Part shown: piece by piece, positions 120 to 15,670 of the stretch
Layout of the letters: every line of letters begins with the position of its first letter
How positions within the stretch are numbered: position 1 is the stretch's first letter
Assembly (NCBI GenBank): GCA_015499985.1
Contig: JAAAUF010000433.1
Location: forward strand, 1-15,764
Direction of reading: 5' to 3'
DNA length: 15,764 bases
DNA from: Haplosporangium gracile
Taxonomy: Eukaryota; Mortierellomycota; Mortierellomycetes; Mortierellales; Mortierellaceae
Notes under the pieces: model-generated
Database searches by the model: none
What the model was told of the DNA's origin: nothing
The model's input: only the letters and a program-made list of their open reading frames with translations
Program-made: the position numbers and the translations under genes

Positions 120-1527
120 GAGACGGGCAGATCGACAGCTCTAGCGGCAATCTTTCGGAACTGAAGGGTTTTTGAAGCATGGTCGACACCCTTGACCGTT
201 CCGCTGATAACCACCTGAAATGACTTATCTCGTCGCCGTCACCATAACACAAAATAAAGTCAAAAAAAAAAAAAGTCAGCTTTGCTGCAGGAAGGATCAA
301 CTATGCAAGAGTGGTATGCAAATTTTTGATAAATGAACCTTTCTTGTTCTTTACGCTGTTGATGTTGGCGATTTCGGCAATTTCTCCTGTGGATGAAAGC
401 TCGGCTTGGATATCGTGCATAGCTTTGATGAGGTCGTCGAGTTTGAAGGCGCGGACGACGAGGGCTGACATGGCTGTCATTCCTTTCTTGTCTGTCACCG
501 CCCTTGCCATTGCATCTCCGCGTATTCTCTAACAATATCAAAAGTAGCCATGCTTAAGTATTCTCAACAAAAAAAAAAAAAAAAAAGATGGCGTTCATTC
601 ACAAAGTGTTCAAATTGAACTTACTACCAAGCGGACAGCATCCGCAAGACTCAAAGCACGCGTCGCAACCAAAGCTGAATACTCTCCTAGCGAATGACCC
701 AACACAAACCGGCAACTTTCCTTTAAATCCAATCCCTGTTCAGCCTCCAGAACCCTTAACAACGCGATAGAAGTCGTCAAAATGGCGGGCTGTGCGTTCT
801 CAGTCCTTGTGAGTTCTTCTTGTGGTCCTTCAAACATGACTCTTTTCAGGTACCCTTCTTCTTGAGGTGATGATGCTGATACTGAAGGAGGCATGGAGGA
901 GAGGATGGCGTCAGCTTCGTCAATGGTTTGACGTGCGATAGGGTAAGTCTCGTAGAGATCCCGGCCCATTCCGACGAATTGTGAACCTTGGCCTAATTAG
1001 CGATAAACGTCGGGTTGATTAGAGCGTTGTTGGAGAAGTGTTGGTGGCAAAGAGGGTGGTTTAGTTTATTCTTTCGTTCACCCTGCGCTGTTCATTTCAT
1101 TTTTGCTTGAGATGAGGTACCTGGGAAGAGAATGGCGCGCTTGTTTGAAACCTGTAACAAATAAAAAAAAAAATTGAGGAGGAGTTGAGTTGAGATATGT
1201 TGTGGCTGTGCGAGGGCGAAGTTTTTGATTATTGTGAAGTGGAAGATCGATATGCTGGAGTGGTTCTCTTTCCATTTTCATGTGCTGGCATGAAAATGCA
1301 TGTACATGAAATGTTTCGCTGATTGTAGGTACCTGCGGAAGAGATGCAGGTGCACTGGAGACATTGGTCGAGTAGAGGCGTGAATAGGGTTGTGTCTGAT
1401 CCGCTCTGGTAGCGTTGAATCCAACTGATCTTGACAGGGGCGATAATTTGGTGCCTCCGATGGACGCTGTCGGGAGTCGTATTGCACTCCTGACAGCGGT
1501 AGAAGTAGAGGACGGAGCGTGTGCCAT
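120..1527 (-). CDS. MCT1: Mitochondrial malonyl-CoA:ACP transacylase (FabD family), 3' part missing
   Basis: The enzyme moves malonyl from CoA to acyl carrier protein in mitochondrial type II fatty-acid synthesis. Model (minus strand): exons 1527-1333, 1151-1121 (only 31 nt), 992-625, 528-355 and 223-120, all with GT-AG introns and matching phases, giving 290 residues plus a split Ser codon. Residues 1-65 are rich in S/T/R/A with almost no acid, ending near RLYST, which fits a mitochondrial presequence. The catalytic core follows: ILFPGQGSQ (oxyanion Gln77), the nucleophile elbow GHSLGEYSAL (Ser176), and the substrate-carboxylate Arg at RIRGDAM (Arg201). The last exon reads NINS/SFQVVISG and ends at AVDLPVS. 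The catalytic His (APFH block) and the C terminus lie beyond position 1; no fitting acceptor is visible in 1-118. The acceptor at 224-225 was chosen over the later CAG at 215-217 because it restores the SFQ of the family alignment. The start ATG at 1527 is the only one placed before a presequence. Confidence 0.93.
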
Positions 1528-2086: not shown

Positions 2087-4895
2087 ATGGCTTGTCCCTA
2101 CTGTGGTGGAAACAGTATCGAGTATGACTCGGGTCAAGGAAACGCAACCTGCACGGGCTGCGGTGCCGTAAGTCTTCCCTCCTCCTCGTCGTCTTTGTCT
2201 GTTACTTGGCTGTTATTTTGATGTTTGTGCGGTAATGATAACTGACACCTTCACTTTTGCCCTTCTGAAAAAAAATCAATTTGATATAGGTCTTGGAAGA
2301 AAACACCATTATTGCAGAGATCTCATTCAATGAAAGTGGAGGAGGAGCTGCCTCGGTTGTCGGAACATTCATCGGCGAAGGAAAGGGTAAGAATGCAACA
2401 ATAGATGTTTAATCGATCGATAACAAGGATATCTCGTCAAAATAGGTTTTTTTTTCTTCATCCGAGCATCCTCCTATCATGTAACGTTTTCTAATTTATT
2501 GATCCTCTTTTAATCTTTTCACCTTTTCTTTTCTATAGCTGGAGCACGATCTATGGGACCGGGACGGAGACAGACAAGTCAGGAATCGAGAGAAAAGACA
2601 TTGGATGCAGCCAGGAGACGAATCACAGCTATGGCGGTCGCTCTTAAGCTGAACGAACATCATGCTGAAGTCGCCCAACGCTATTTCAACCTGGCCATCA
2701 CCAACAACTTTATCCAGGGTCGTCGGAGTGAACATGTCGTCGCCTGCTGTCTTTATATCGTCTGCAGATTTGAAAAGACTACCCATATGTTGATCGACTT
2801 TTCCGAACTTCTTCAGGTAACTTTGGTTTTTTATTTTGAATTATTTAGTGGGAGTGTTACATGAAAAGATGACTCATCTTCTAATCTGCTCTTCTTGCTT
2901 TACCTATTCTATTAGTTGAATGTGTTCAAGCTGGGAGTGACATTTCTGCATTTGACAAAACAGCTGAACCTTCAGCTGCCACTGGTTGATCCTTCACTGT
3001 ACATTTCTCGATTTGCGACCATGCTGGATTTCGGCGAGGATACACAGCGAGTCGCCAACGACGCTCTCCGCTTGGTCTCGCGCATGGGTCGTGATTGGAT
3101 CAGGACCGGTCGTCGTCCAGCTGGTATCTGTGGCGCCTGTCTGCTCATTGCTGCGAGAATGCATCACTACAGACGTTCACAGAAGGAGATTATCCAGGTT
3201 GTCAAGATTGGAGAGTCCACTTTGAGGAAACGGTAAGGAGCACTGTGACTTTTTGTGGTTCATTTTATTTCCTTCAAAAGATATATCGTACGAGAAGTTT
3301 CTAACTTAACTTTTTTTTTTGTCGTAATAGATTGGATGAGTTTGCGTCGACGCCTTCGGGACAATTGACAGTATCTGATTTCCAGGAATTGTGGCTGGAA
3401 GATGCAGCAGATCCACCTGCGTTCACAAAGTCAATGAAAAAGGCGCACTGGGAACTTGGAGAGGACGAGGAGGAAGAAGATGAGGTCAACAAGGAAATTA
3501 TTCGTCGTGGACAAAGGTCGTCCAAGATTGATCTGCATACTGTCAAGGAGGACGAAGACGAAGAGACTAGTGCCGAACATGTTGTTCCTGTGGCTGGCAA
3601 GCGGAATCGAGAAGCTGATGATGAGGGAGATGAGGAAGACGAGGAAGCGATGGCAGCAGCGGTGGCCACAGCAAAGATTGCAGGAGAAGGTGGAGAAGAG
3701 GAGGAAGAGGGAGAGGGGGAAGAGGGAGATGAGGAAGAGGAAGAGGAACTGGAGGAGGAGATGGAGGCAGCCATGCACAATCCTCTGATAATGCGAGAAG
3801 AGGCTCGTCTGGATGGTAAGTTGCAAACGTTTTATGTTCACGCACGTTCACTGACAGTTCGTATTATTTTTCTGGGCGCATTCTTCTAAACTATGTTTCC
3901 TTTTATTTGGTGCTACTTTGATAGCTGAGGAAAAGGCGCGCAAGTTGATTCCATATGAACCCTTGGATGATGTGGACGATGACGAGATTGATAGCATTAT
4001 CCTGAACGACGAGGAGGTCAAGATCAAGACTCGGGTCTGGATGGAGTTCAACAAGGAGTATCTACAGGAACAGGAGGAGAAGCGTGCACGTATTGAGATG
4101 GAAAAGAAGATGGGTATCTATCATAACAAGAAAGGAGTAAGTTCATAAACATGTTGGAAAGATGTTTTATCGATACAGGCGTATTGAAAGAAAAGGAAAA
4201 GACGCTAACAAAACATTCACTCCTTTTCAACCTTATGTTTCGTTATATAGCGCAAGAAGGCAAAGCGCAATGTTCAGGGAGCAGGCTCGTCGACAGCAGC
4301 AGAGGCGGGAAAGAACATTTTGCAGCCAAAGCTGCCTCGCCAGAAATCAAAAAAGATCAACTACTCTGCACTGGACAACATGGACGAGCTTTTCGATACG
4401 AAGCCGGTTGTATACGAGTCTGGATCACCAGCACCCATCAAATCTGTCTTTGAGGAACCAGGATTGGTCCGGACACCTGTTCGGTCACGACAGTCATCGA
4501 TGGGTCCCAGTCGGGAGGGGTCTGCTCGCCCTGGCCGTTTGGCATCTGTCAGTAGGATGATTAAGAGCAATACGGGTAACTCTGTCAAGTTTTCGTCAAC
4601 GCCCACAGGGAGCAGGACGGTTTCGAGGGAACAGTCGATTCAGGCGCGCAGCCATGCATCCAATGGCTCGCAGCGGGAGAATGACGAGGATGAGGACGAG
4701 ATTATTGCGCCTCCCAAGTCGCGGACGAAGGCTGAACGTGAGGCTGAGGCCACCCCTGCGCCAGAGGAGGAGGAGGAAGTTATGGACGCTGAGGAGGAAG
4801 AGGAGTTGCCTGATCAGTCCTGGGGCGCGATGATGGGATACAGTCAGGTTGAGGAGGAGGATTATGGCTACAACGATATGGGCGACGACTGGTGA
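2087..4895 (+). CDS. BRF1: TFIIIB subunit BRF1 (RNA polymerase III initiation factor)
   Basis: BRF1 joins TBP and BDP1 in TFIIIB and recruits RNA polymerase III to tRNA, 5S and related genes. Model: exons 2087-2167, 2290-2386, 2539-2816, 2916-3232, 3331-3815, 3925-4136 and 4251-4895; phases agree throughout and give 704 aa. Residues 3-25 form the zinc ribbon (Cys3, Cys6, Cys22, Cys25; MACPYCGG...CTGCGA), followed by VLEENTI. Exons 3 and 4 carry the two cyclin-fold repeats; the second contains [29 protein letters not shown] and [12 protein letters not shown]. Exon 5 ends in a very acidic low-complexity stretch (about residues 355-405). Homology block II, which binds TBP in yeast, starts near residue 433 ([33 protein letters not shown]) and runs into [13 protein letters not shown] (about 526-538). 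The C terminus is acidic and ends in GDDW. Length is close to yeast and human BRF1. The ATG at 2087 places the zinc ribbon at residue 3, as is usual for the family. Confidence 0.96.
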
Positions 4896-8957: not shown

Positions 8958-11596
8958 ATGGCAGATAGTCGCATAGACTACCAGCCACTTAGCACAAGGG
9001 GCCAAGACTCACCCGTTCTCACACGCAACAGCAACGACAAAACAAAACGTGAACATAACCACGGTCACCACGACAATGACGAGGACGATGCTATCCATGC
9101 CACAGAATCCCAGGGTCTCGTCAGCTCTTTGTCAGATCGCGATTTTGTAGAGCACCATCGACAACAGAGACTACTGGAAGACGAGGAGAATGAGGACAAT
9201 GGATCAGGACAGGCTTCAAAGAAAGATCCAAAGGTGGCCGCCGCGGAATGGGCCGTCAAAGTCCAGGCGTTCTCGTGTGCTGCCCTGCTGGGTATTTCGA
9301 CCCACTTTACAATCCACATGACAGGACCTTTGAAAGATGTCCTCAAAGAGGTGAGTTTTGCGCTTTCACTCGTCTCCAAGTTCAAGTTTGACTCGATGCT
9401 TTCACTTTTCTAAATGATCTATCCTTACCAAGACAACTAAACCTGTAACTTTGACCAAACAATGATAGAACATGGATATCAACAATACTCAGTTCTCACT
9501 GTTGCAGTCATCACTGACACTTTTCCCAACTTTGACACCACTCATTGGAGGACTCTTGATCGAGCGGTACGGGACTGGACCAAGCTCAATTGTCTTTACA
9601 ACGATTGTCATCGCTGGTCAGGCGATCGTCATTCTAGGCTGTTGGACTCACTCCATCAAGATTATGATCCTTGGATACTGTCTCTTCGGGTAAGGGTGCT
9701 CATTTGAAAGCTATCTTCTCTGCATCGTTGCAGTATGAAAGAAATTGAGTTTACTTATGTCAGCTCTTTTTTCTCCGTATGACGTTAATAGACTAGGCGC
9801 TGCGCCCATTACAATTATTCAGGAGACGATATGGGTGCGATACTTCAAGAAGGATGGTCTGGCTCTTGTCTTGGCTTTGGGGCTGACCAGCGGCAAACTG
9901 GTAATGTTGCATGAAAATACTGTTCAGGAACGTTCTTTCAGTAGCGGACGAAATTGGGGGACGGAGTCAGAGACACATTGACTCACCCTGTTATTTCGCG
10001 TTTGCTGATATATTAGGCAGGGTTTCTGGCATTGGCGACATCAGTACCGCTGAGCACACTACCGCCGTTCGGATTCGTCACGCCGTTCTTTGTGTCATTG
10101 ATCATCTCTGCGATCGCATGGGTGATGAACATTATCTTTTTGACGCTGCTGGAGAAACCAAAGGAGGGCACAGATACGATGACCAAGATTACAATCCTCT
10201 TGAAAGCTAAGCGAACCAGTCTTGGTTGGAGGGAGGTCTATGGGTTCTCAACCATGTTCTGGACACTGCTGACTATCAGCTTCTTAGTCGGTGCCAGCTG
10301 GAATCCTTTCATGCATCAGTCCAGGTAAGGGGATTGGTGGAAGATATCTTATGAAGATTGAGGTCAGCTTGCAACCGATACTAATTTATTATTTATCGAC
10401 CTAATAGTAATATTGTGAAGCATCGATACGGATTGGACGATGAACAGGCAGCATGGCAGGCATCGATCATTTTGGCGGTCCCGCTGATAATATACCCCTT
10501 TCTCGGCACTTTCATCGACCACGCCGGAAAACGCGCCTGGATGCTCTTGATCACAGCCGGATTGTTGATCGGGACACATGTGCTCCTGCTCATCCCCTAC
10601 AGCGCGATCCCGATCCCACCAACAGTTCCTATGCTCCTTTTTGCTCTCTCACTCTCACTAGGGACATTGTCGATTGTGACCAGTATGCCCGTCTTGACGA
10701 AACATGTGCCCACAGGACTCGGTCTTCACAGATCAATCGACAACATTGGAGCTACACTCTTTGGGACCGTCTCAGGGATGATGCAGGACTTTTCGGGCGT
10801 TGTAGGACCTGATGGAGAATCGGACAGCGAGAACTTTTTTGACCGACTGTACCATCACTTCTTCCCAGTTCAAGTGGACGAGGCGCTTCAAGAGAAGGAG
10901 GATACAAGGCTGTTAGGCTTGTTTTTGGCAGTCGCGGTTCTGACATTCATTGCTTGTTCAATCTTTGTCTGGGGCGATTATCATTGGACGGATGGCGAAG
11001 GTGGCAAGACAGGGTTGGTCAATGGGGTCTATGGTAAGACTCCAGCAGCGGTATTGGCAAGTCACAGGCGAAGAAGTCGACGGCGGCGGGAGCAAAGGAA
11101 CAGGCGAAGGAGCCATGAGGTCCTGGAGGCAATGACTCTGGAGCCTATATTTGAACTGGATGATGAACAGGACGCTGAAGAAGTGACCATGACTGAGATT
11201 GGCGCGCAACATTCAAACCATCACCAACGCGATCGGGACGAGCAGCACGAGTTTCACTTGTCGAATCACCCACCAGCAACACCAGACAGTCGGTTTCGTG
11301 AGTCAGAAATCGACAGCCTATCTTCCGGACAAGATTTACTCCTTGGGGATGACCACCGGTCACGGAGAGACAGCGAGTTCTTGTCGAATCCGGACGGAAG
11401 CGAAGGCGAGAGTGACGAGGAAGATGACGATGACTCTGAGGACGAGAATGGAGAGCGACGGTTTGGAGTGCGGATTGAGAGTGGTGATGATGAGGTGCCG
11501 CATTTCAAGAGGGTGCAGGCGCATTTCTGGATCATGGTCTGGTCTATCCTCCTTCTCACTAGCTGGGTCGTCTTTGGCATCGGTGTCGCCAAGTAA
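8958..11596 (+). CDS. Major facilitator superfamily transporter, MFSD1-like, with extra C-terminal membrane segment
   Basis: Model: exons 8958-9350, 9469-9689, 9792-9900, 10017-10324 and 10408-11596, phases consistent, 739 aa. Residues 1-100 are hydrophilic with His/Asp and acidic runs and are probably cytosolic. Twelve membrane segments of an MFS fold follow from about residue 105 to 535, including DINNTQFSLLQSSLTLFPTL, the helix 2-3 loop IGGLLIERYG, and helix 4 YCLFGLGAAPITIIQETIW. This pattern resembles MFSD1-type transporters (a lysosomal dipeptide uniporter in animals), but the substrate here is unknown. After helix 12 (LFLAVAVLTFIACSIFVW) comes a loop of about 175 residues with an arginine cluster (SHRRRSRRRREQRNRRRS) and many acidic runs, then a further hydrophobic segment HFWIMVWSILLLTSWVVFG and the stop. 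Intron 3 (9901-10016) starts with a weaker GTAATG donor, but its exons join precisely within SGKL/AGFLALA. Sure of the MFS family, moderately sure of the MFSD1-like affiliation. Confidence 0.9.
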
Positions 11597-11786: not shown

Positions 11787-14700
11787 ATGTCGATGCTACG
11801 TCTACAAGGACTCCACCATTGCATCGTCCTCAGCAGGAAGATCGCCACTCACCAACAACAACGTGCCATTCCTCGAGCCGCAGGAAACTATGTGTTTCAG
11901 TGGCCTGGAAATGCTCTTTGTCCTGTAGGGCGAATAAGAGGAGGTCAAACAAGGTTTATTTCAGAGGCGCTCCTGCGAGAGGAGTATGAGGCTGTCAAGG
12001 CAGTTGAGAAGAAGACTGTGAGACAGTGCAAGAAAGCCCCAGCCAGCAAGGATACCGTTGCCTCCACTGTCATTACCAACGCCATTACACCAAAAGTCAG
12101 CAAACCAAGGACGAAAAAGGCGCCGAGCAGTCAACAGCTCAAGGATGAGGCTCCTGGAGATGCTGCTAGGACAGTAGTCAGAATCAAGAAGGAGAAGGGT
12201 ACGAAGGACAAGAAGATTCTGGAACCAGCTCTTGTTGCGAACGAGGCAACAGCAGCTGGTCAGGTGGCGGTCGTTGCCACCAAAACCAAGCGAGCCTCCA
12301 AATCCAAAAGCAAGACTACTACGCTTGACACACCATCAGCAGATGCCACCATCCCAGCGCCACCAGTCGAGACACAGCTTCGGCCATATCAGCAAGAGTG
12401 TATCGACAAGTGTCTCGAAAACCTGAAGAACGGTATCATGCGCCAGATCGTATCCCTTCCTGTTGGCAGTGGCAAAACCGTAAGCGAGAGAGAATATACA
12501 ATCCTGTTAGCTTATCCGGATGTATTTTCATGCGTCAGGGGAAAGGAGCGGAGAAAATTGCCTTTTTGGTTCATACCCATTCTGTTACTGACAACCTTTT
12601 TTTGCATGATTTTTTTTTTTTTGGTAGGTTATCTTCTCGCATTTGATGAAGCAAGTGCCGGCACCGTTCCCGGGCGCCAACAAGACGTTGATTCTGGCGC
12701 ATAGACAGGAGCTTTTGGAGCAAACGCGGAATCATGTTCTCAGGAATGGTACCGGGCTGGTATGTTCTTATTACTTTATTTTTCTCTCGCGTCACCGTGA
12801 GTGAATCGCGAACTCATTATTTTTAGCTGAAATATTGACGGTGCATTTCTCCGTGTTTGACGTGGGCTATTAGAGAGTGACGATTGATCAAGGAAAACGC
12901 ACGGCGGATATGACTGCCGACGTGATTGTTGCGAGTGTACCGACTCTTGGACGTGCTGGAACTACTCGGATACTTAAATACAACCCACAGGACTTCAAGT
13001 GCATCATCATTGACGAGGTATCGAGTCCTACATCATGTTGCCTATGTTGATGAAAGATACATGGCTTGCTGCTTGTACGATATCTAACGCATTATCGTTG
13101 ACATATCTAGGCCCATCACGCAGCAGCAGACTCATATGGCAGGATTCTAAAACACTTCAGAGCAGATGTTCCTAAGACCCACATCTTTGTCTATGGATGC
13201 TCCGCGACCGTGAGGCGACATGATGGTCTGAAACTGGGAGGCGTTTTCGATCATATTTCGTTCCACAAAGGATTCATTACCATGATCGAGGACAAGTGGC
13301 TCTGTGGACTACGCGTGTCGACCATCAAAACCGAATTTGACCTGAAGGATGTTCAGACTAAGGGAGGCGACTTTGTGCCCAAAGAGTTATCGCTGAAGGT
13401 CAATACACCCGTCAGAAACGATATCGTTGTTCGCAGCTATATGACCTATTGTGGTAAGTGTTAGCTTGAAAGTTTATCGGCTTAGTATACTTCATGTGTT
13501 TTGTCGTCCTTCCTTTTTTTACTCGTGGCTAACTTACGTCATTTGATGTTATTTAGGCGCGCGCAAGTCGACGGTAGTGTTTGCGGTAGATATAGCGCAT
13601 TTAGAGAGTTTGACAGAGACCTTCCGACAGTACGGGTATGATGCGCGTGGACTGTCGAGCAAGACCAACGATGATGAACGCGCTCAGATGTTGAAGGACT
13701 TTAAGGATCAAAAGTTCCCCGTCATTGTCAACTGTGGTATTCTGACCGAAGGCACAGGTAAAATATTCGTTTTGTGCCTGTACTTTACGCGTTTACTCAA
13801 TTTTAAGCCCAGGACTAATTAACTGTTGTGGTTAGATATCCCGGTGATTGACTCGATTATCATGGCGCGGCCGACAAAGTCGAACGTCTTGTTCCAGCAG
13901 ATGTTGGGACGAGGAATGCGGTTGCATCCGGGGAAGGAAGATTGTCTTGTTCTTGACTTTGTGGATATTGTGCGAGGCGATGGACTTGTGACATTGCCTA
14001 CTTTGCTTGGCCTTGAGACCGATTCTATCTTAAATGGTAAGCCTTTGGTTGCCCTCGGAAAGGTTATTCTCGCGACTGGTATGGCTAGAAAACTGACTTT
14101 TTAATTTCTAATTTTGTGATGCGGATAAAAATATTGTAGAGGAGACCAAAATCAGTGATCGCGAAGTTGTAGATGCGATCCGAGACGAGCAGATCGCGAC
14201 CCTAGAAGGAGAAGTCCTCGCGTCATCCGAGTTCCCGGACGAGACCGAGACCGTTGAAGAAATCGATCCATCCACAGGACTTAAAATTGCACGGATCCGG
14301 GTCCTTGAGTACGAGAACCCGTACCAGCTGATCGGAGACTGCAGCGGGGCTAACAGGAGAGTTGCGGCCATGTCACGGAACGCTTGGGTCAATGTTGGCG
14401 CGGACGCTTTTGTCTTAATGTGTCAGGAGATTGCGTTCCGGATTGAGAAGTCGGAGAAGGATGGGCTGTATCGGTGTTATAAGCGGGTGATGATGGATAA
14501 GCGACATGAGGATGTGGATGGCAAGGCGTTGTCCTTGTCCCAGAAACTGAAGTTAGCCAAGCAGCAGCACCAAAATCCTAGGAGGCGGGAGTCCACGTCC
14601 AAGGACGGTGGCCAGGCGGCAATGTTTAGGACCAAGGAGAACGAGTTGCCGATTCAGTCAGATACACTGGAGGACTGCTTTCATGGAGTCGATACCTGGA

Positions 14701-15247: not shown

Positions 15248-15670
15248 TTACTGGGGGGGTCCTTGCATCTGGCCGGGCTGTTGGAGGGGCACCAGGGTGA
15301 CGGCAGTTCCGTATGCCATGACTTCGGTCATTCTGTTACAAGTACAACAAAAAAAGAAAAAAATTGTTAGCGGCGTGGTGGTTAAAACTTGGACGAAACA
15401 AGCATGTTTTGACCAGTGGCAGTAGAAAGGTTTGTATCGTCATTTTTTTTTTTGAACTTACCCCTATTGAAAACACGTCGCGCAAATGTGAATGAAGAGA
15501 AGAGAGAAAGAGAAAAAAGAAGATGATATCGCAAAAATGTTAGTAAAGTCTGAACGTCCATCTTTAGCCATTTTGTCGCAAACTGGTGGTCCCACCGAGT
15601 CCATTGTATCACTTGCTCCTGTCTCTTACCTGGATGATCTCCTGTCCTGTAAATTTGACTCCAACAACAG
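15248..15670 (-). CDS. YbjQ/UPF0145 (DUF74) family protein, C-terminal part only
   Basis: Model (minus strand): exons 15670-15630 (41 nt), 15463-15462 (2 nt) and 15332-15248, ending in TAA at 15250-15248. The joined protein reads (A)VVGVKFTGQEIIQ, then G, then MTEVMAYGTAVTLVPLQQPG and a short Gln/Pro tail. The block AVVGVRF...I..G.TEVLAYGTAV is the C-terminal signature of the YbjQ family, a small pentamer-forming domain of unclear function, proposed to bind metal. The first exon seen starts with CT after an acceptor TAG at 15673-15671, so the preceding exon ends in phase 1 and lies beyond the right edge; no fitting donor is visible in 15674-15764. The final A run (15752-15764) may mark the end of the assembled sequence. 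The family call is fairly secure despite only about 41 residues; the micro-exon is treated separately. Confidence 0.75.
15462..15463 (-). other. Candidate 2-nt micro-exon of the YbjQ-type gene
   Basis: On the minus strand the sequence runs TTTTCAATAG, then GG, then GTAAGTTC. The acceptor AG is at 15465-15464 and the donor GT at 15461-15460, leaving an exon of only GG. The upstream exon ends in phase 0 (ATC ATC CAG, before GTAAGA at 15629) and the downstream exon starts with A ATG ACC after TAACAG. Only two inserted bases restore the frame, and GG makes GGA, the conserved Gly before MTEV. Flanking introns would be 166 and 129 nt. Confidence 0.5.

What the first reader, a model, noticed from the sequence alone, without database searches (positions are those of the whole stretch)
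15248..15670. Two-nucleotide micro-exon needed to keep a YbjQ-family gene in frame
Seen: two exons with clear family motifs (VVGVKFTGQEIIQ and MTEVMAYGTAV) are out of frame by two bases if joined directly across 297 nt. Between them lies a consensus acceptor and a consensus donor with just GG in between (15463-15462). Including GG gives Q-G-M-T-E-V, with the conserved Gly and the exact family spacing. A longer exon in that phase is blocked because the preceding triplet is TAG. Established: exons of very few nucleotides are reported in some plants and animals but are rarely annotated, and gene finders cannot call them. Alternative: a weaker donor GTGATA 20 nt after CAG at 15630 would also restore the frame, but adds six residues not expected in the family.
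Basis: partly seen in the sequence, partly recalled or inferred. Interest (0 to 1): 0.8.

Follow-up and report, generated by a model that had tools for sequence, protein, structure and literature searches.

The report
Two-base exon in fungal YbjQ genes
In a soil fungus of the Mortierella group, a gene of the YbjQ family very probably needs an exon only two letters (GG) long to stay in frame; a second, diverged copy in the same genome has the same two-letter exon, and public gene models of related fungi tend to go wrong at exactly this spot.

Summary
Observation confirmed. On the minus strand, exons 15670-15630 and 15332-15248 (PF01906, YbjQ) are two bases out of frame if joined directly. The 297 nt between them hold one AG-NN-GT site, TAG|GG|GTAAGT at 15463-15462; including GG gives QGMTEV, exact family spacing and the best Pfam score of three variants tested. 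Interpretation supported and extended. The same genome (almost certainly Haplosporangium gracile) has a complete diverged paralog on contig C782 with the same 2-nt exon (TAG|GG|GTAAAT) between introns that give no blastn match; without GG it hits a stop. Two tandem paralogs (C867) have one intron there, with two bases fused to the next exon. Public models of this subfamily from other Mortierellaceae break down here: 53 of 60 lack the exact spacing, against 1 of 22 in the sister subfamily. Seven end or run on from G as expected if AG|GG|GT is read through. The rival GTGATA donor is what the public model of this very gene uses, but its six residues occur in none of the other 123 proteins fetched. 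No RNA was available, and DNA was read from one fungal species only. Sub-codon exons are known (1-nt exons in Arabidopsis and Fusarium), so this is a new member of a known kind.

The parts
15630..15670 (-). 41-nt coding exon (A)VVGVKFTGQEIIQ of a YbjQ (PF01906) gene; upstream exons lie beyond the window, where the contig reads N (15765-18712)
   Evidence: the paralog has a 41-nt exon at the same place; public model P0018 supplies the upstream protein
15464..15629 (-). intron 1 (166 nt): donor CAG|GTAAGA, single CTRAY branch candidate TACTAAC at 15545-15539 followed by a pyrimidine tract, and no AG until the acceptor CAATAG
15462..15463 (-). two-nucleotide exon GG (first two bases of the Gly codon GG|A)
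15333..15461 (-). intron 2 (129 nt): donor GG|GTAAGT, nearest branch candidate GCTAAC at 15371-15366, T-rich tract, acceptor TAACAG with no AG between that candidate and the acceptor
15248..15332 (-). last coding exon (A)MTEVMAYGTAVTLVPLQQPGQMQGPPQ and TAA

Best explanation
The gene is a YbjQ-type (PF01906) gene of, almost certainly, Haplosporangium gracile (Mortierellaceae) with a constitutive 2-nt internal exon, GG. Two ordinary GT-AG introns, each with its own donor, branch candidate, pyrimidine-rich stretch and acceptor, flank it. Shown here: frame, consensus sites, family spacing, and the same exon in a diverged paralog. Inferred: that the mRNA contains GG, and how it is made. A 2-nt exon leaves no room for ordinary exon definition, so I think the introns are removed one after the other by intron definition. 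Removing intron 1 first leaves CAGGG|GTAAGT, still a good donor; removing intron 2 first leaves TAG|GGAATG, a good acceptor. GG plus the A of the last exon encodes the Gly (Asn in some bacterial relatives) in the short turn between the last two strands of the fold. The most likely history is gain of a second intron two bases downstream of an older, shared intron, before the C556-type and C782-type genes separated.
For: (1) Complete paralog on C782: exons of 98, 22, 136, 41, 2 (GG) and 211 nt give an open 169-aa protein; leaving out GG gives ...QEIIQND*. Its introns of 137 and 133 nt give no blastn match (word 7, E up to 10) to those of 166 and 129 nt here, so TAG|GG|GTAA is kept while its surroundings are not. 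(2) Tandem paralog C867a has an intron at the same place and reads GAG|GAAATGACTGAG, the two bases fused to the next exon. (3) Intron sizes: the 13 other introns read in these genes are 97-140 nt (10 of them in C867; the 3' end of one C867b intron is doubtful); the four flanking the GG exons are 129-166; merged they would be 297 and 272. (4) In the 37 homologs checked outside the two Mortierellaceae groups, the distance from the strand motif to [MVI][TN]EV is 12 in all 37 (28, the 9 missed by its pattern), preceded by G in 31 and N in 6; with GG this family also has 12. (5) Public models by tree group: exact spacing in 7 of 60 in the group holding C556/C782, 21 of 22 in the sister group (Fisher p 1.3e-12, rows not independent). 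Five of the 60 end right after G, as GGG TAA would give (compare 'QG*' for this gene if intron 2 is kept); two read GYI; three spurious inserts end in QG. (6) Gly100 of P0015 lies between strands 86-98 and 101-115 of the predicted structure (mean pLDDT 87.6).
Against: No RNA read was available. Fungal DNA was read from one species only; for the others the exon is inferred from how protein models fail. Three of the 7 exact-spacing models carry Arg, not Gly (P0009, P0014, P0076), which I cannot explain without their DNA. 43 of the 60 models (15 other inserts, 13 without the FTGQE exon, 9 other ends, 6 joining at VMAYG) neither show nor exclude the exon. P0012 is exact and may simply lack intron 2. 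One more sister-group-like model, P0122, came up only, is not in the tree and lacks the exact spacing; with it the sister count is 21 of 23. Intron 2 of C782 has no CTRAY branch candidate, only TTGAC. The site pattern shows no genome-wide excess. A 6-residue insert in a hairpin turn (rival) would not by itself destroy the fold. The grouping rests on a tree with few columns and modest support.
Confidence: 0.93

Rival explanations
1. A single 280-nt intron with the donor CAA|GTGATA, 17 nt further on, adds VRDRSK; no micro-exon.
For: It is the only in-frame single-intron solution in this gene and is the public model P0018 of this gene.
Against: It skips CAG|GTAAGA for a donor without G at -1; it scores below the Pfam cut-off (19.8 bits); the paralog's single-intron solutions give unrelated inserts with poor donors, and its public model uses a different added exon (KRNTTTGHDQK); VRDRSK occurs in P0018 alone among 124 proteins fetched.
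Confidence: 0.03
2. A pseudogene, or a sequencing or assembly indel that broke the frame.
For: A +2 frame break alone would look like this; the contig reads N just beyond the window.
Against: Both diverged paralogs are +2 out of frame at the same junction with the same rescue site, the C782 gene is otherwise fully open, and public models of many related species fail at the same place.
Confidence: 0.02
3. Complex intron (stwintron) or recursive splice site: GG is only a staging site and the final mRNA lacks it.
For: TAG|GG|GTAAGT looks like a recursive splice site, and fungal nested introns are known (listing and abstracts).
Against: A final mRNA without GG is out of frame, and in the paralog it stops at once. 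If splicing is stepwise but GG is kept, this is the same as the main explanation.
Confidence: 0.02

Closest known systems
1-nt exon of CYP621A in Fusarium (PMC12940212; parts 1-2 of 3 of the text and passages read)
   Same: Fungal nuclear gene; sub-codon exon in a conserved Gly codon (AG|G|GT); found through out-of-phase exons and relatives; public gene models wrong there, transcripts too except one
   Different: 1 nt rather than 2; P450 gene in ascomycetes; confirmed by RNA reads; here Mortierellomycota, two paralogs with and two without, no RNA yet
1-nt exons of APC11 and VPS55 in plants (PMC4674806, part 1 of 3 read; PMC8831610, passages read)
   Same: Constitutive sub-codon exon, misannotated; some copies carry it fused into a larger exon or lack it
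   Different: Plants; tested with reporter constructs (APC11) and with RNA-seq and RT-PCR
2-5 nt exons in Arabidopsis, Drosophila and human (Volfovsky et al. 2003, as cited in PMC12940212; that paper itself not read)
   Same: Same size class
   Different: Not fungal; I did not see individual cases
Stwintrons, nested fungal introns (search listing and abstract openings only)
   Same: Two introns side by side, removed in successive steps
   Different: There one intron splits a splice element of the other; here two complete introns leave GG between them

Membership tests
Micro-exon (internal exon under 3 nt) | Flanked by a complete acceptor and a complete donor | tested here: met
   CAATAG|GG|GTAAGT, branch candidates without intervening AG on both sides
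Micro-exon (internal exon under 3 nt) | Needed for the reading frame and the family's residue spacing | tested here: met
Micro-exon (internal exon under 3 nt) | Conserved in homologous genes | tested here: met
   Read in DNA of the C782 paralog; absent from both C867 paralogs; other species only by inference from protein models
Micro-exon (internal exon under 3 nt) | Present in mature mRNA | not testable with these tools
   no RNA data
YbjQ_1 (PF01906) | Profile match over the curated cut-off | tested here: met
   25 bits against 23 for the two exons with GG; not met by direct join (20.5) or GTGATA (19.8). Only the C-terminal part is in the window
Stwintron | Internal intron interrupts donor, branch or acceptor of an external intron | tested here: not met
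   each intron has its own sites; two bases remain between them and are needed in frame. Definition from abstract openings

The most novel reading that the evidence does not exclude
A 2-nt exon arose once in Mortierellaceae by gain of an intron two bases from an older one, was copied by gene duplication, and has been kept across much of the family, making it a widely conserved sub-codon exon in fungi that public annotation largely misses. Keeping intron 2 yields a ready stop (QG*), so the junction could also act as an expression switch (speculative).
Probability: 0.55. Interest if true: 0.7.

Novelty: new member of a known kind. Interest (0 to 1): 0.6.

Why it matters
It would be a 2-nt exon kept in a fungal gene subfamily, with natural controls (paralogs with and without it) in one genome. 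It tests how a spliceosome handles an exon too short for ordinary exon recognition, and shows a systematic fault in public annotation: 53 of the 60 models of this subfamily examined lack the family's exact spacing at the junction. In the library searched (the last listed only 25 of 3,437 papers, and most listed papers were not opened) I found no report of a 2-nt exon in fungi; the nearest is the 1-nt exon in Fusarium.

Tried and rejected
A second protein search, meant to find cDNA-derived fragments crossing the junction, gave 15 proteins, none recognisable as a transcript of this subfamily; four of its five new proteins or metagenome pieces looked at (P0120, P0122, P0123, P0124) do not cross the junction and are in no count. 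A genome-wide excess of YAGGGGTRAG as a sign of many such exons: none. A weak YbjQ-like match on C670 (E 1.9) was dropped. The GTGATA donor, pseudogene or assembly error, and stwintron readings were rejected for the reasons given under the rivals. The idea that the Arg models come from aligning cDNA 'GG' onto the acceptor's 'AG' was left open.

Literature: 10 searches. Three papers were opened: PMC12940212 (parts 1-2 of 3, and passages), PMC4674806 (part 1 of 3), PMC8831610 (passages). All others were seen only as listings with abstract openings, among them PMC11121469, a micro-exon in Trichoderma.

Full report
What is there. The window is the first 15,764 bases of contig C556 (33,602 bases) of a 37.5-Mb assembly. 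The gene lies on the minus strand; its 5' exons fall where the contig reads N (15765-18712).

The observation. The two exons are +2 out of frame when joined. Between them is a single AG-NN-GT site, CAATAG|GG|GTAAGT. Intron 1 has one CTRAY branch candidate, TACTAAC, and from there to the acceptor there is a pyrimidine tract and no AG; intron 2 is built likewise with GCTAAC nearest its acceptor. With GG the peptide passes the PF01906 cut-off (25 bits against 23); without it 20.5, and with the GTGATA donor 19.8. Enumerating in-frame solutions gives one single-intron solution (GTGATA, 17 nt further on) and eight with a small added exon; the GG exon has the top score on a simple consensus scale. 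Chance rates are low but were computed after the fact.

The decisive comparison. Searches of the same genome, which give lower bounds, show three more YbjQ genes. The C782 gene is complete and has the same 2-nt exon, ACATAG|GG|GTAAAT, between 137-nt and 133-nt introns that give no blastn match to those of C556, while the flanking exons are 29 of 41 and 54 of the first 70 bases identical. With GG it encodes 169 residues; without it the frame stops after QND. The two tandem genes on C867 have only the first intron, and their next exon begins GA|AATGACTGAG, so two bases are fused to it; one of them, C867b, has an early stop and looks decayed. So two of the four genes carry the exon and two do not.

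Other species, through protein models. One search listed the best 120 of 823 proteins. I took 89 fungal rows (P0001-P0094 without P0088-P0092) and placed them on a tree of their N-terminal parts (few columns, modest support, midpoint root). From it I took 60 rows as the C556/C782 group, 22 as the C867-like group, and set aside 7 outgroup rows (Actinomortierella 2, Calcarisporiella 3, chytrids 2), all 7 with exact spacing and Gly. In the first group 7 of 60 have the exact spacing (4 with Gly, 3 with Arg). The rest: 15 other inserts, 13 without the FTGQE exon, 9 other ends, 6 joining at VMAYG, 5 stopping right after G, 3 inserts ending in QG, 2 running on as GYI. In the second group 21 of 22 are exact; P0122, met later and not in the tree, would make it 21 of 23. 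Reading through the first donor would begin with V, so models that end in G or run on as GYI imply a splice to an AG followed by GG and a GT donor (GGG TAA, GGG TAT); they are from Dissophora ornata, Mortierella sp. AM989, Entomortierella parvispora, Mortierella sp. NVP85, Dissophora globulifera, Haplosporangium bisporale and Podila epicladia (names). P0060 ends in END*, as a direct join would give. The six models of the first group whose listed name begins 'putative heavy-metal-binding-domain-containing protein' (P0001, P0009, P0010, P0014, P0015, P0076) all have exact spacing; this may reflect transcript-informed annotation, but I could not check it, and three of them have Arg. Rows are not independent, and some species appear more than once.

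Function of the residue. In an AlphaFold2 model of the Linnemannia elongata relative P0015 (mean pLDDT 87.6) Gly100 sits between the last two strands, 86-98 and 101-115. In the 37 homologs checked outside the two groups the residue is G (31) or N (6) and the spacing is constant, as suits a tight turn. Bacterial relatives with solved structures exist (1y2i, 2gtc, 1vr4). The function of the protein is not known to me beyond the Pfam label 'putative heavy-metal-binding'.

How it probably works and arose. I infer two separate intron removals by intron definition, in either order, because both intermediates keep good sites. Since the outgroup models and the C867 type look like a single-intron state, gain of the second intron two bases downstream is simpler than repeated loss, but exact spacing in a model does not prove that intron 2 is absent, so this is an inference.

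Novelty. Exons of 1 nt are documented in Arabidopsis APC11 (PMC4674806), in plant VPS55 (PMC8831610) and in Fusarium CYP621A (PMC12940212), and exons of 2-5 nt are cited for Arabidopsis, Drosophila and human (PMC12940212, citing Volfovsky 2003, not read). This is a new member of a known kind; the probable conservation across related species, paralogs with and without it, and systematic misannotation are what make it interesting.

Noticed in passing
L007:1588-1609 (C782) and the two C867 genes in L008: A 22-nt exon conserved in the three YbjQ genes whose 5' part could be read; six public models (P0062, P0064, P0074, P0075, P0077, P0083) appear to skip it.
   Followed up: partly
L008 minus strand, about 4612-3650 (C867b): Tandem YbjQ copy with an in-frame TAA at codon 4 and other decay; looks like a pseudogene. 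Described only.
   Followed up: partly
public proteins P0009, P0014, P0076: Exact family spacing but Arg in place of Gly at the micro-exon codon; unexplained.
   Followed up: partly
window 610-966 (-), 2553-2816 (+), 10415-11593 (+), 13577-13822 (+): Neighbouring gene pieces: acyl transferase domain, TFIIB repeat (BRF1-like, name recalled), MFS-like protein below the Pfam cut-off, helicase C-terminal domain at its cut-off; three other pieces of the seven scanned gave no family.
   Followed up: no
contig C556 15765-18712: A run of N begins exactly where the window ends, hiding the 5' exons of this gene.
   Followed up: no
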